A stretch of DNA of 38,021 bases, from the NCBI RefSeq assembly GCF_000721495.1, contig NZ_JOHY01000061.1, positions 1 through 38,021 on the forward strand, read 5' to 3'. Both the position numbers and the translations under genes were made by a program. Under the pieces are notes generated by a model. That model did no database searches. It saw only the letters and a program-made list of their open reading frames with translations, and was not told the origin of the DNA. This document shows positions 16,372-30,573 of this stretch, piece by piece; the first letter of the stretch is position 1, and each line of letters starts with the position of its first letter. Source of the DNA: Streptomyces sp. NRRL F-5123. Lineage in GTDB: Bacteria > Actinomycetota > Actinomycetes > Streptomycetales > Streptomycetaceae.

Positions 16372-16405
16372 CCCGCCCGGGTCCCGTCCGCCGTACGGCC
16401 AGGAC

Positions 16406-16735
16406 TCAGGCCCTCGCCTCACCCTCCGGGTTCACGCGGTCCAGCACGATGTGGACGCGGTGCTCGACGTGCGCCACGCGCCAGCGCCTGCCGAGCAGGT
16501 CGACGGTGCTGCCCGCGACCAGCCCCGGGTGGTCCGACACGGTCTCGCCCTCGCGGTAGACCCGCAGGCCCCCGGCCGGCGCGGCGGTGGCGCCGGCGGA
16601 CGTACGGGCCACGACGAGGTGGATCCGGCCCCGGTGCCGCACGAAGTACGGCACGTGCCAGCGCACCGACCAGTGGTCCGGCGGGTACGTGCCCTCGGGC
16701 GGTGTGGAGGGCTCGCGGCGGGGCTGATCGCTCAC
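16406..16735 (-). CDS. 109-residue protein of the calpain cassette, unknown
   Basis: Soluble, mixed-charge protein with no signal peptide or transmembrane helix. It has a short Pro-rich start, then WSVRWHVPYFVRHRGRIHLVVAR, which reads as beta strands, and a C-terminal LLGRRWRVAHVEHRVHIVLDRV segment, also beta-like. I do not recognise the family. GTG 16735 overlaps the calpain-like gene's stop by 4 bp (GTGA, 16732-16735), so it is translationally coupled to the protease. It could be an inhibitor or immunity partner, a substrate, or unrelated; position alone supports the idea. Confidence 0.65.
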   Translation of the reverse strand: MSDQPRREPSTPPEGTYPPDHWSVRWHVPYFVRHRGRIHLVVARTSAGATAAPAGGLRVYREGETVSDHPGLVAGSTVDLLGRRWRVAHVEHRVHIVLDRVNPEGEARA

Positions 16736-18237
16736 GGGATCTCGAACTCCTGCGGATCGACGAAGTATTTGTCGAACTGCTCCTGCGAGACGACGACCTC
16801 GGGCGACGGGCTGCCCCACGGGTTGCCCAGCACGATCTTCCCGTCGCTGGTGAAGCGCCGCACGTAGTACGCGTGGTCGGTGTGGTAGCCGTCCGGAAGG
16901 TCCGCGGGAGGGTTGTCCTCGTCGCCGTCCGGGGTGAGGACGGTGATCGCCTTGCCCGAGTCGAAGATCTTCTTCAGGTCGGCGATGCTCTTGTCCTCGT
17001 GCTTGCCGATGCCCAGGAAGCCGCCGGTCTTGATGTCGCCGCCGGAGTGCCCGGTGATGTAGGGCACCGACTTGCCCGGGTTGTTGTTCTCGATGCCGCC
17101 GTAGCCCTTGTCGCCGCCGAAGGCGATCGCGAACGCCTTCTCGTAGTAGCCCGGCCAGGTGTCGCCGCTGCCCGTCGCGGACACCGGGTAGCCGTCCCCG
17201 TCCACCAGCAGGTCCGGCGTCACCGTCACCCAGCGGAAGTTACCCCCCTGGTCCCAGACCCGCACGCTCACCGTGCCGTTGGGGTTCTGCTTGATGCCGT
17301 CCTGGATGAACTTCGGGTCACGCTGCGCGACCGAGCACAGCGAGGAGAAGTACCAGCAGTCGCCCAGGCCGCGCTGGTGGATGTCGTCGACCGACACGCC
17401 GTCGGCGATGAGCGGGTCGGTGGGCACGCCCCAGTGCAGGCCGGAGGCGTTGACGCCGTTCTGGGTGTTCTCGCCGTCCTTGTACGCGCCGGTGCCGGTG
17501 AAGTCCGGCTGGACGCTGGGGAAGGCGGCGAGGAACTTGTCGAAGTTCTCCGGGCCGAGCCGGGACAGCAGGGTGTCCAGGGTGGTGTCGCGGGACTGCG
17601 CGGACACGCCGTTGGAGTCGAAGGGGTTCCAGCCGGAGTCCCCGTGGTCGTTCATCAGCTCGTTGTAGTGGGCGAGGTCGGCGGGGGAGGCCTTGGTGAT
17701 CACGGCGTCCAGCTCCGCCGAGGTCAGCCCGGTGAGGGTGGCGGCGAGGTCGTCGAGGTCGTCGGTGTCGCCGTTGACGCCGAAGTCGGTGTGCTGGAGG
17801 GCCTGGAGGGCCTTCAGCGCCGCGTCGACCTTCTTGCCGTCCGGCGCCTTCTCGTCCAGGAAGACCGAAGCGGCGTCCACCGGGTAGCCGGCCGCCGCGA
17901 AGACCTGGACGCCCTTGAGCTGGGTGATCCGGCGCTTGATCTCGCCCTGCATGGTGCCGAGTTCGGAGGTGAGCTTCGCCGGGAGCGGGGCGTTCGGGCC
18001 GGAGGGCGCGGGGGCCTGCTGCGGCAGCGGGGGCCACACGATCCCCGGGAAGACGGTGACGAGCTGCTGGAGGGCGGGGTCGTTGGAGGCCTTCTGCCCC
18101 GCCGGCAGGTTCTGCTGGACGCCGTCGAGCAGGGTGGTGAGCTGCTGGTGCAGACCCGCCGCGTGCCCGGCGAGCGAGTCGAGGGTGCCCGCGAAGCTGG
18201 TGAGCAGGTCGGGGTCGAAGCCGTGGAAGTCCGTCAC
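16732..18237 (-). CDS. Calpain-family (C2) cysteine protease with WXG-like N terminus
   Basis: 501 residues. The C-terminal catalytic domain (about 265-501) has the calpain triad: Cys294 in QRGLGDCWYFSS, His455 in DHAYYV and Asn472 in LGNPWG. The first 45 residues form two amphipathic helices (FDPDLLTSFAGTLDSLAGHA) resembling WXG100/LXG N termini. A helical middle region follows (about 90-240). There is no Sec signal, no transmembrane helix, and no calcium-binding EF-hand of eukaryotic type. The start GTG 18237 overlaps the WXG-like gene's stop by 4 bp. I infer a type VII-associated protease or effector, but no secretion machinery is in the window. Confidence 0.85.
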   Translation of the reverse strand: MTDFHGFDPDLLTSFAGTLDSLAGHAAGLHQQLTTLLDGVQQNLPAGQKASNDPALQQLVTVFPGIVWPPLPQQAPAPSGPNAPLPAKLTSELGTMQGEIKRRITQLKGVQVFAAAGYPVDAASVFLDEKAPDGKKVDAALKALQALQHTDFGVNGDTDDLDDLAATLTGLTSAELDAVITKASPADLAHYNELMNDHGDSGWNPFDSNGVSAQSRDTTLDTLLSRLGPENFDKFLAAFPSVQPDFTGTGAYKDGENTQNGVNASGLHWGVPTDPLIADGVSVDDIHQRGLGDCWYFSSLCSVAQRDPKFIQDGIKQNPNGTVSVRVWDQGGNFRWVTVTPDLLVDGDGYPVSATGSGDTWPGYYEKAFAIAFGGDKGYGGIENNNPGKSVPYITGHSGGDIKTGGFLGIGKHEDKSIADLKKIFDSGKAITVLTPDGDEDNPPADLPDGYHTDHAYYVRRFTSDGKIVLGNPWGSPSPEVVVSQEQFDKYFVDPQEFEIP

Positions 18238-18581
18238 TTGGGGCCGCTCGCCGGGGTGCCCGCGGCGGACTTGCTCTTCGCTCGGTCCTCCAGGTCGGAG
18301 GCCGCCGACTCCCAGCGGGCGGCGTCCGCCGTGAGCGAGGCGGCCATGGCGTGCAGCGCCTTCTGCCGCTGCGCCAGCGTCGTCGTGCACCGGTCGGCGT
18401 ACGGGCCGGTCCACATCGCGCCGCCGGTCAGGGCGCTGCCGGGCCGCGGCTGCGCCTTGGACACCGCGCCGTCCAGATACCCGCTCAGCGACTTCGCCAG
18501 GGTGCGGGCCTGCCGGGCGTGGTCGCGCAGCGCGGTCGCCCGCTGCCTCAGCACGACCGGATCGTCGTCCCCGTAGCCCAT
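18234..18581 (-). CDS. WXG100-like (Esx-type) protein
   Basis: 115 residues, almost entirely helical. Trp57-Thr58-Gly59 sits in a glycine-rich turn between two long helices (about 8-45 and 60-103), the geometry of WXG100 proteins. The last dozen residues are disordered. These proteins dimerise and escort or accompany type VII secretion substrates. ATG 18581 was chosen because GGGGAGG lies 7 nt upstream. A -10-like TAGGCT at 18645-18640 (minus strand) suggests a promoter separate from the lipoprotein gene 99 bp upstream. The stop overlaps the calpain gene start, so partner expression is coupled. Confidence 0.75.
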   Translation of the reverse strand: MGYGDDDPVVLRQRATALRDHARQARTLAKSLSGYLDGAVSKAQPRPGSALTGGAMWTGPYADRCTTTLAQRQKALHAMAASLTADAARWESAASDLEDRAKSKSAAGTPASGPK

Positions 18582-18680
18582 GGCCAGCCTCCCCCGCGGC
18601 GATGTCGACGGACCGTCAGCACGTCGCGGCCCGCCGGGGAGCCTAGCGGGCACCGTCCGGTTCCTGCCACCGGCCGGTTC

Positions 18681-19469
18681 TCATCCCTCCCGCGCGGTGA
18701 GCGTGACGGCCGTGCCGGAGGTGAGCGGCCCGACGGTGAGGAGCACTCCGCCGATCTCCACAGTGTCGCCCGGGCGCAGGGCCAGGTACTTCGCCGCGGT
18801 GGTGCCGGCGCAGTAGACGTCCAGCCCGGCGGTCCCGCCCGCGGGGTCGGCGTAGGTCGCGACCGCCATCAGCCCGGCCGCGGTGTCGTGCGGCCGGTGC
18901 ACGCCGAGCACCAGGGGGCGGCCGGGTGCCGGGAGGTCCGCGGTGCGGGCGGCGCGGGCTGCCGGGTCGGTGGAGAAGCACAGGGCGCGCAGGGCCGCCT
19001 GGTCCTTGCCCGCGGCCACCGACGTCAGGACGGCCGGCTTCGCCGCGGCCGCCGCCCGGTCCGCGGCCGCGCGCGGTACGAGGACGACGCGGTAGGCGCA
19101 GATCTGCGCGACGGTGTACGCGTGGCCCCGCAGGGTCACCCCGGCGCCGGGGCGTACCTTCGCGGTCTGCCGCGCGGGCCCGGCCGGGGGCTCCGCCACG
19201 GTGAGGGTGGCGGTGCGGGTGGCGCCGTCACCGGTGGTCCCGGCGGGCGTCGCGGGGAATTCCACGGACATGCCGCTGCCGTCGGGCAGCGGGACCGAGC
19301 CGCCGCGCAGCACGTGCAGGCCGTCCGCCGGGGCGGTACCGGAGCACACCGGGCCCCGGTCGGGGGAGGGCGGCAGGGTACGGGCCTTCCCGCCGCCCCC
19401 GCCGCACGCCGTGAGGGCGGTGGCCAGCGCCACCGCCACGAGCCCGCCGCATACCGTCCGGCACCGCAT
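18681..19469 (-). CDS. Lipoprotein, hypothetical
   Basis: 262 residues. A lipoprotein signal peptide ends in the lipobox LTAC with Cys22, followed by a Gly linker. The mature part reads as repeated beta segments with several Cys (near VCSGT, QICAYR, ALCFST and DVYCAG) that could form disulfides outside the membrane. I recognise no enzymatic motif. It follows serB by 32 bp on the same strand and precedes the WXG-calpain cassette, so it may be transcribed with serB. Whether it belongs functionally to the cassette is open. Confidence 0.72.
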   Translation of the reverse strand: MRCRTVCGGLVAVALATALTACGGGGGKARTLPPSPDRGPVCSGTAPADGLHVLRGGSVPLPDGSGMSVEFPATPAGTTGDGATRTATLTVAEPPAGPARQTAKVRPGAGVTLRGHAYTVAQICAYRVVLVPRAAADRAAAAAKPAVLTSVAAGKDQAALRALCFSTDPAARAARTADLPAPGRPLVLGVHRPHDTAAGLMAVATYADPAGGTAGLDVYCAGTTAAKYLALRPGDTVEIGGVLLTVGPLTSGTAVTLTAREG

Positions 19470-19501
19470 GCCCCACCCCCTCGGGGCGAGAGCGTAGCGG
19501 G

Positions 19502-20770
19502 TCAGTCCGTGGGCACGCCGTCCAGCGCGTCGGCCGCCTCGATCTCCTCGCGGGTGATGCCCAGCAGGAAGAGCACGGTGTCCAGGAAGGGCACGTTGAC
19601 GGAGGTGTCGGCGGCCTCGCGGACGACCGGCTTGGCGTTGAAGGCCACGCCGAGGCCGGCCGCGTTGAGCATGTCCAGGTCGTTGGCGCCGTCTCCGATC
19701 GCGACGGTCTGGCTCAGCGGCACCCCGGCCTGCTCGGCGAAGCTGCGCAGCAGCCGGGCCTTGCCCGCGCGGTCGACGATCGGCCCGGTCACCCGCCCGG
19801 TGAGCCGGCCGTCGACCACCTCCAGGGTGTTCGCGGCGGCGAAGTCCAGCCCGAGCCGCTCCCGGAGGTCGTCGGTGACCTGCGTGAAGCCGCCGGAGAC
19901 CACGCCGACCTGGTAGCCGAGCCGCTTGAGGGTACGGATCAGGGTCCGCGCGCCCGGCGTCAGCCGCACCTCGGACCGCACCTTGTCCACCACCGACACG
20001 TCCAGCCCCGCCAGCAGCGCGACCCGGGCGTGCAGCGACTGCTCGAAGTCCAGCTCACCGCGCATCGCGGCGGCGGTGACCTCGGCGACCTGCGCCTCGC
20101 ACCCGGCGTGCGCGGCGAACAGCTCGATGACCTCGTCCTGGATCACGGTGGAGTCGACGTCCATGACCACCAGCCGCTGCGCCCTGCGCTGCAGCCCGGC
20201 CGGCACCACGGCGACGTCCACCCCGCGCGCTGCGCCGGCCACCGCGAGCGCCGAGCGCAGCGCGACCGGCTCGGCGCCGGACACGGCGAATTCGACGGCG
20301 GTCACCGGATATTTCCCCAGCCGGAAGATTCGGTCGATGTTCCCGCCGGCGCCGGTGATGACGGCCGTTATGGCCGCCGCCGTTTCCGCGGTGAGCGGCC
20401 GCCCGAGCACCGTGACGTGCGAACGTCCTTCGCGGCGCGGCCGGTTGTCCCCGATGCCGGAGATGATCTCGGCCTCCATGCCCAGGCTCTCCGCCCAGCT
20501 GTGCACGGTGGCCCGCAGGTCACCCTCGCTGCCCGTGCCGGGCGCGGGGGTGGTCACCAGCGCGCACAGCATCATCCGGCCGCGGGTCACCACCTGCTCG
20601 ATGTCCACCACGTCCACGCCGTAGGCGGCGAGCGTGTCGAAGAGGCCCGCGGTGGTGCCGGGGCGGTCCTTGCCGAAGATCTTGACCAGCAGGGTCGGCA
20701 CGTCGTCCGCCGGAACGGGGGCGGCGGGCGTGACCGGTGCGGCGGAAGCGGTCTGCGAGGCGTCGTCCAT
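19502..20770 (-). CDS. serB: Phosphoserine phosphatase SerB
   Basis: 422 residues, last step of serine synthesis. Two N-terminal ACT-type domains (about 25-105 and 118-190) probably sense serine or another amino acid. A HAD phosphatase domain follows, with the nucleophile Asp204 and acid Asp206 in MDVDSTV, the second motif VVSGGFTQV, and motif IV GDGANDLDML. This is the ACT-ACT-HAD layout of mycobacterial SerB2. ATG 20770 was chosen; the first 22 residues are a disordered Ala/Pro leader. It is divergent from the FHA-ABC gene; a TACGGT hexamer lies 9 nt upstream of the start. Confidence 0.95.
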   Translation of the reverse strand: MDDASQTASAAPVTPAAPVPADDVPTLLVKIFGKDRPGTTAGLFDTLAAYGVDVVDIEQVVTRGRMMLCALVTTPAPGTGSEGDLRATVHSWAESLGMEAEIISGIGDNRPRREGRSHVTVLGRPLTAETAAAITAVITGAGGNIDRIFRLGKYPVTAVEFAVSGAEPVALRSALAVAGAARGVDVAVVPAGLQRRAQRLVVMDVDSTVIQDEVIELFAAHAGCEAQVAEVTAAAMRGELDFEQSLHARVALLAGLDVSVVDKVRSEVRLTPGARTLIRTLKRLGYQVGVVSGGFTQVTDDLRERLGLDFAAANTLEVVDGRLTGRVTGPIVDRAGKARLLRSFAEQAGVPLSQTVAIGDGANDLDMLNAAGLGVAFNAKPVVREAADTSVNVPFLDTVLFLLGITREEIEAADALDGVPTD

Positions 20771-30508: not shown

Positions 30509-30573
30509 CCCGCGCCGGCCCCCGGCCCTGACCCGCGCCGGCCCCCGGCCCTGACCCGCGCCGGCCCCCGGCC
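30505..30573 (+). repeat. 23-bp tandem repeat, three perfect copies
   Basis: The unit begins CTGACCCGCGCCGG and ends in CCCCCGGCC. Copies lie at 30505-30527, 30528-30550 and 30551-30573. The first contains the TGA stop codon of the ABC ATPase gene. The CCGG-rich units could fold into short hairpins and may act as a transcription terminator. Confidence 0.9.

What the first reader, a model, noticed from the sequence alone, without database searches (positions are those of the whole stretch)
16406..18581. Translationally welded WXG - calpain protease - unknown cassette
Seen: three minus-strand genes overlap by GTGA at both junctions. The first is a 115-residue helical protein with a W57-T-G59 turn. 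The second is a 501-residue protein whose C terminus has a complete calpain triad (Cys294, His455, Asn472) and whose N terminus is a WXG-like helical hairpin. The third is a 109-residue beta-rich protein of no known family. Known: WXG100 proteins pair with type VII substrates, and calpain-type C2 proteases occur sporadically in bacteria. Inferred: a protease effector with a chaperone and possibly a protective or accessory partner. Its own TAGGCT promoter hints at independent control. This is the best candidate for an undescribed system in the window.
Basis: partly seen in the sequence, partly recalled or inferred. Interest (0 to 1): 0.75.

Follow-up and report, generated by a model that had tools for sequence, protein, structure and literature searches.

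The report
Calpain toxin cassette with paired inhibitors
A soil actinomycete carries a four-gene cassette that looks like a calpain-type protease weapon, its secretion partner and two related protective proteins, one inside the cell and one on its surface; this gives bacterial calpains and an unnamed protein family (DUF6406) a testable role.

The parts
16372..19501 (.). Inserted segment between the sixA-like gene (ends 16371) and the serB-like gene (its 3' end at 19502); holds the four cassette genes
   Evidence: In 17 of 17 same-genus relatives read (L219-L235) the two flanking genes lie within about 180 bases of each other and no cassette protein matches. The names sixA and serB are by eye, not from a family search.
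18681..19469 (-). Lipoprotein, 262 aa, lipobox Cys22; C-terminal copy of the DUF6406-like domain: proposed surface immunity protein
   Evidence: The cytosolic-immunity profile A4 hits 18696-18890 at E 1e-5; plain BLASTP with gene 3 is not significant, E 0.077. Cys22-Gly23 invariant in 13 of 13. Homologues lie downstream of the calpain in relatives.
18234..18581 (-). WXG-type partner, 115 aa
   Evidence: W57 and G59 invariant in 22 of 22; profile-profile match to WXG100-type proteins P 90.3, E 1.5e-6, with W-x-G aligned.
16732..18237 (-). Calpain effector, 501 aa
   Evidence: Pfam Peptidase_C2 42.4 bits, cut-off 23.8; 114 homologues at E up to 0.001.
17863..18237 (-). N-terminal delivery module of the effector (residues 1-125, GFD motif, helices 9-43 and 87-115)
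   Evidence: Alignment A2, model; shared with an RNase A toxin in L033.
16735..17601 (-). Calpain protease core (residues 213-501), Cys294, His455, Asn472
16406..16735 (-). DUF6406-like all-beta protein, 109 aa, no signal peptide seen by eye: proposed cytosolic immunity protein
   Evidence: Eight-strand model, mean pLDDT 82.1; 19 of 24 alignment members match DUF6406.

Best explanation
A horizontally acquired antibacterial effector cassette linked to type VII secretion. The WXG-type protein pairs with the N-terminal helical module of the calpain protein and routes it to a T7SS; the calpain domain is the toxin. The DUF6406-like protein binds the protease in the producer's cytosol, and a lipoprotein carrying the same domain protects the outer face of the producer and its kin. 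Shown: gene content, linkage, domain identities, toxin swapping on the same module, homology of the two protective proteins, and insertion into an otherwise empty site. Inferred: secretion, toxicity, inhibition, and the target.
For: Linkage: 37 of 37 N-module calpain loci (of 58 loci with genes called, out of 62 returned) have the WXG gene upstream and an immunity-like domain downstream; 33 and 35 by profile, the rest recognised by eye in six frames at five loci where my gene caller missed a gene or ran it together. Toxin swap: L033 has a homologous WXG gene and module with RNAse_A_bac (4.3e-24), followed by CdiI_2 (1.5e-13). Calpains with other N-termini keep an immunity-like neighbour: a Pfam T7SS_signal domain (L088, 4.4e-6) and a weak WXG100 match (L092, E 0.07). 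Independent DUF6406 test: the only hit in 61 genomes is the gene after a calpain. In 396 phylum genomes, 2 of 5 full-length hits directly follow a calpain. Two compartments: cytosolic and anchored copies are 50-53% identical in 4 of 14 pairs compared (L024, L058, L060, L065); groups C2 and LC2 P 99.8. EssC-like ATPase within the flank in 9 of the 37 loci. Two EccC above cut-off in the own genome. Loss pattern: the standalone cytosolic gene is not seen without the module (12 of 12 with it), while the lipoprotein occurs without any calpain in 3 of 18 genomes. In L177 the lipoprotein remains beside the same two WXG100-type genes as in L035, without the other three genes.
Against: No experiment. 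The N-module has no significant profile match to WXG100 (P 4) and no Pfam match. Gene 1 does not reach Pfam's WXG100 threshold and shows no conserved YxxxD/E signal. No T7SS core gene was recognised in the window. In 7 of 14 pairs, the window's included, BLASTP between the cytosolic and surface protein is not significant, and group D does not match its own lipoprotein group LD (P 0.3). The cytosol-versus-surface loss difference (0 of 12 against 3 of 18) is too small to be significant, and these genome searches scored only the best few candidates per genome. Ten of 19 calpain loci without the module have no immunity-like neighbour. Three of the 5 full-length DUF6406 hits have no calpain nearby. 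No complex was modelled.
Confidence: 0.75

Rival explanations
1. A secreted processing or nutritional protease: the WXG gene and module export a calpain that matures other secreted proteins or feeds on extracellular protein, and the DUF6406 proteins are pro-inhibitors that prevent premature activity.
For: The inhibitors would look the same in sequence; calpain-fold proteases have housekeeping roles elsewhere (recalled); no substrate is known.
Against: The same kind of module carries an RNase A toxin with a CdiI_2 immunity gene. Patchy presence (20 of 394 family genomes carry the module) and insertion between housekeeping-type genes fit a conflict system. The lipoprotein persists in 3 genomes without the protease.
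Confidence: 0.12
2. An intracellular abortive-infection or toxin-antitoxin protease: the calpain is held by DUF6406 and freed on infection; the WXG-like hairpins only oligomerise it.
For: A protease-inhibitor pair would suit such a system; some DUF6406 genes occur alone.
Against: The lipoprotein copy is extracytoplasmic by its lipobox; there is a WXG-type partner; EssC-like neighbours in 9 of 37 loci; a Pfam T7SS_signal N-terminus in a relative. PADLOC: no match at E up to 0.1 for any of the four proteins.
Confidence: 0.06
3. The DUF6406 proteins are not inhibitors but adaptors or substrates that guide the protease to its site.
For: No structure of the pair; the fold gave no clear match.
Against: The position equals that of CdiI_2 in L033. 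The domain is retained without the protease (L034 has a TM-anchored copy fused to the module plus a second copy; L177-L179 have lipoproteins alone).
Confidence: 0.07

Closest known systems
Bacterial calpains with WXG100 domains (Rawlings 2015, PMC4631099; passages read)
   Same: Calpain C2 peptidase with a WXG-type delivery feature; a reviewer there suggests T7SS toxins
   Different: There the WXG100 domain is fused in one protein (Herpetosiphon, Segniliparus). Here the W-x-G sits in a separate upstream gene and the fused module is a different helical domain. The passages read name no immunity proteins.
EsxX with ExiAB and ExiCD of Staphylococcus aureus (PMC12744356; abstract and passages read)
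   Same: T7SS toxin with separate cytoplasmic and extracellular-side immunity; surface immunity also found as orphan genes
   Different: EsxX is a membrane-depolarising LXG toxin and its two immunity families are distinct; here homologous domains serve both compartments, against a protease
Cpe1 and Cpi1 cysteine-protease toxin and immunity pair (PMC12136450; abstract and passages read)
   Same: Papain-fold protease toxin with an adjacent small immunity protein
   Different: T6SS or CDI delivery in Gram-negatives, a papain-like rather than a calpain protease; one immunity protein in the passages read
Polymorphic toxin systems with papain-like peptidases such as Tox-PL1 (PMC3482391; passages read)
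   Same: T7SS-linked actinobacterial toxins with C-terminal papain-like peptidases
   Different: 'Calpain' does not occur in the held text; no immunity family is listed for Tox-PL1 in the table passage read

Membership tests
Calpain (MEROPS C2, PF00648) | Profile match above curated cut-off | tested here: met
   42.4 bits, cut-off 23.8
Calpain (MEROPS C2, PF00648) | Cys-His-Asn triad and protease-core fold | tested here: met
Calpain (MEROPS C2, PF00648) | Calcium-dependent activity | not testable with these tools
   Needs protein. Rawlings reports calcium site 1 in a Streptomyces viridochromogenes homologue; L042 comes from that species, but I did not check that it is the same protein
WXG100 superfamily (gene 1) | About 100 residues with W-x-G | tested here: met
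   115 aa; W57 and G59 invariant in 22 of 22; helices of gene 1 were not modelled
WXG100 superfamily (gene 1) | Profile similarity to WXG100 proteins | tested here: met
   hhalign P 90.3, E 1.5e-6 for this single comparison, against ten WXG100-type proteins chosen by me; against PDB, EsxA and EsxB appear only at E 0.065-0.93, not significant
WXG100 superfamily (gene 1) | Pfam WXG100 gathering score | tested here: not met
   Only a weak DUF4407 match at E 0.004
WXG100 superfamily (gene 1) | Conserved C-terminal YxxxD/E secretion motif (recalled definition) | tested here: not met
   No conserved Tyr in A3
T7SS polymorphic toxin system | Conserved N-terminal delivery module with exchangeable C-terminal toxin | tested here: met
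   Module with calpain (window) and with RNAse_A_bac (L033); further uncharacterised C-termini in L134 and L135-L137
T7SS polymorphic toxin system | Cognate immunity gene directly downstream | tested here: met
   37 of 37 N-module calpain loci by position and homology; inhibition itself not tested
T7SS polymorphic toxin system | Export by a T7SS | not testable with these tools
   Two EccC above cut-off in the genome; EssC-like neighbours in 9 of 37 loci
LXG effectors | LXG domain by Pfam | tested here: not met
   Only C2 listed for gene 2 at E up to 1
DUF6406 (PF19944), gene 3 | Profile match of the family | tested here: inconclusive
   Window copy E 0.1, below cut-off; 19 of 24 members of its alignment match at E up to 0.1, best 5e-10; weaker competing matches: Phage_attach 8 of 24, EFP_N 6 of 24
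EsxX-type compartment-specific immunity | Separate cytosolic and surface immunity; only the surface one occurs as orphan | tested here: inconclusive
   Both forms present; orphans 3 of 18 (surface) against 0 of 12 (cytosolic)

The most novel reading that the evidence does not exclude
DUF6406-type domains are a dedicated family of protein inhibitors of bacterial calpains, made as paralogous cytosolic and surface-anchored copies. Calpains across Actinomycetota are largely conflict toxins delivered by type VII systems, so the protease family known from animal cells has a large bacterial weapon branch with its own calpastatin-like antidotes, of an all-beta fold that gave no clear match among solved structures.
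Probability: 0.5. Interest if true: 0.72.

Novelty: new variant of a known kind. Interest (0 to 1): 0.58.

Why it matters
What bacterial calpains do is an open question, and Rawlings (2015) describes homologues as rare and scattered. A conserved effector, partner and dual-immunity cassette would explain that scatter in Actinomycetota and gives direct tests. It also proposes a role for DUF6406, a family whose name occurs in no paper of the searched library, and predicts a natural protein inhibitor of the calpain fold. Homologous immunity domains placed in two compartments would complement EsxX, where two distinct families do this.

Tried and rejected

Rows dropped and limits. L093-L096 (4 of 62 loci) were left out of gene calling as short non-actinobacterial matches. 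L076 and L077 match the module only weakly (2e-7, 9e-6) and have neither neighbour; with them the linkage count would be 37 of 39. The profiles of module, WXG partner and immunity groups were built partly from these same loci, so the per-locus hits are partly circular. Less circular are the homology between groups (A-C P 98.3, A-LA 97.6, C-C2 97.8, B-D 97.3, LC-LF 96.2, LB-LD 95.9, but E-B only 55, A-B 15 and D-LD 0.3; single-pair comparisons) and the Pfam-only test. In one search, 44 of 396 genomes have a DUF6406 match at E up to 0.001 and 6 a match over cut-off (8 rows). Five rows in three genomes are full length, one of them with a stop inside; the others are short stretches of the model, many inside open frames above 850 codons. 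I read the surroundings of six rows (the five and G566, L217, no calpain); two over-cut-off rows (G546, G773) and the weaker ones were not examined. The genome searches scored only 6 to 12 candidates per genome, so absences there are not proof. From I read 18 of the loci returned (L218-L235), not those of other orders.

Full report

THE FOURTH GENE AND THE INSERTION. In relatives its homologue lies downstream of the calpain. The profile of the third protein (A4) also hits the C-terminal part of this lipoprotein in the window's own genome at E 1e-5, although BLASTP between the two window proteins is not significant (E 0.077). Eighteen same-genus genomes were searched for the sixA-like neighbour; 17 had it, and in 17 of 17 the serB-like gene lies within about 180 bases of it and none of the four cassette proteins matches there. 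Both neighbour names are by eye. The four genes therefore form one inserted unit.

LINKAGE ELSEWHERE. A scan of one genome per species gave 62 loci; I called genes on 58 and left out four short non-actinobacterial ones. Thirty-seven calpains share the N-terminal module at E 1e-20 or better, in 17 clusters at 70% identity. The automatic count was 33 of 37 with the WXG gene directly upstream and 35 of 37 with an immunity-like gene downstream. Reading six frames at the five exceptions (L050, L053, L063, L067, L072), I recognised the missing gene by eye in each; in L050 the lipoprotein domain is read in one frame with the calpain, and the L063 domain turned out to be a lipoprotein. So 37 of 37 have both. 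Of 19 loci without the module, 9 have an immunity-like neighbour and 10 do not. Two further Frankia-type proteins match the module weakly and have neither. In total 46 of 58 have an immunity-like neighbour.

DELIVERY MODULE AND TOXIN SWAPPING. In L033 a homologous WXG gene and module are followed by an RNase A domain of CdiA-CT type (PF18431, 4.3e-24) and a CdiI_2 immunity gene (1.5e-13). L088 joins calpain to a Pfam T7SS_signal domain (4.4e-6); L092 joins it to a weak WXG100-like N-terminus (E 0.07). Module proteins with other, unrecognised C-termini occur in L134 and L135-L137. The module is found in 20 of 394 family genomes. The WXG gene matches ten WXG100-type proteins by profile (P 90.3, E 1.5e-6, W-x-G aligned), but the module itself does not. 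EssC-like ATPases lie in the flank of 9 of the 37 loci; three of these nine were scanned with NCBIfam and match EssC at E 6e-166 or better, below that model's cut-off. Extra WXG100-type proteins lie in the flank of 11 of the 37. The window's genome has two EccC proteins above cut-off.

THE PROTECTIVE DOMAIN. The third protein is modelled as eight beta strands (mean pLDDT 82.1) with no clear match among solved structures. Nineteen of 24 members of its alignment match DUF6406 at E up to 0.1. To avoid circularity I searched with Pfam's own DUF6406 model. In 61 genomes the single hit is the gene right after a calpain (the G063 locus). In 396 phylum genomes, 44 have some match and 6 a match over cut-off; of five full-length hits in three genomes, 2 directly follow a calpain without this module (L212, L214) and 3 have no calpain nearby. 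The domain comes in two forms: without a signal, and with a lipobox or membrane anchor. I compared 14 cytosolic and surface pairs by BLASTP. In L024, the window genome's second cassette, the two are 53% identical over 83 residues; in L058, L060 and L065 they are 50-52% identical; three more pairs reach E 0.0005 or better and seven, the window's included, are not significant. Profiles of the cytosolic and lipoprotein groups C2 and LC2 match at P 99.8, and A and LA at P 97.6; D and its own LD do not match, though they match B and LB.

LOSS PATTERN. Among 394 family genomes, the lipoprotein profile is found in 19 (18 without the weak G396) and the cytosolic profile in 16, of which 12 are separate genes and four lie inside lipoproteins. 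All 12 have the module; 3 of the 18 lipoprotein genomes have no calpain (G202, G303, G393). In G202 (L177) the lipoprotein sits beside the same two WXG100-type genes as in L035, and on its other side is a gene that by eye resembles one upstream of the cassette in L038 and L040, while partner, protease and cytosolic gene are absent. This resembles EsxX, where ExiAB accompany the toxin and ExiCD also occur alone (PMC12744356, abstract and passages read), but the numbers are too small to be significant.

MECHANISM. Most likely the WXG protein and the module form the secretion-competent helical bundle. DUF6406 in the cytosol keeps the protease silent before export and is left behind. The released protease attacks neighbouring bacteria, and the anchored copy shields producer and kin. 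Whether the target is in the envelope or the cytosol is open; dual protection suggests activity on both sides of the membrane. All of this paragraph is inference.

KNOWN AND NEW. Rawlings (PMC4631099, passages read) lists WXG100 domains in calpains of Herpetosiphon and Segniliparus, and a reviewer calls them likely T7SS toxins. Zhang et al. 2012 (PMC3482391, passages read) describe T7SS-linked papain-like toxins; 'calpain' does not occur in the held text. Cpe1 and Cpi1 (PMC12136450, passages read) are a Gram-negative protease toxin and immunity pair. The searches listed no paper whose title or abstract start describes a calpain effector with DUF6406 or paired immunity for a protease toxin; each listing showed only the best 10 to 20, and the library holds open-licence papers only. 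No paper there holds the word DUF6406. I therefore call this a new variant of a known kind.

Noticed in passing
L024:8226-10708 (G000:C31): The window's own genome holds a second, divergent cassette of the same plan (33% identical calpain), with cytosolic and membrane-anchored protective proteins 53% identical to each other.
   Followed up: yes
L034:7278-9107: Module fused in frame to a membrane-anchored protective domain with the calpain domain missing, followed by a second copy of the protective protein.
   Followed up: partly
L139:2841-5597 and L134:2747-4458: WXG partner (L139) and module-derived proteins with other short C-termini and downstream immunity-like genes; no Pfam match at E up to 0.1 for the C-termini, so possibly new toxin domains.
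   Followed up: partly
L135:4441-6159, L136:4083-5777, L137:4334-6055: Module proteins of about 570 residues with a shared, unrecognised C-terminus; L136 and L137 also hold very long genes that by eye look like ATPase components.
   Followed up: no
L079-L082, L084-L086: A conserved calpain family of about 430 residues in Kitasatospora, Streptomyces and relatives with neither WXG partner nor protective neighbour found; probably another role.
   Followed up: no
L213:6387-6650, L215:6556-6807, G127:C19:915585-915839: DUF6406 genes without a calpain nearby; candidate orphan immunity genes, one with a stop inside.
   Followed up: partly
L043, L050: Calpain frame split in two in L043; in L050 the calpain frame runs on into the lipoprotein. 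Sequencing error or decay not resolved.
   Followed up: no
window 30509-30573: Short near-perfect tandem copies of a GC-rich unit after the ABC-transporter-type ATPase gene; seen by eye.
   Followed up: no
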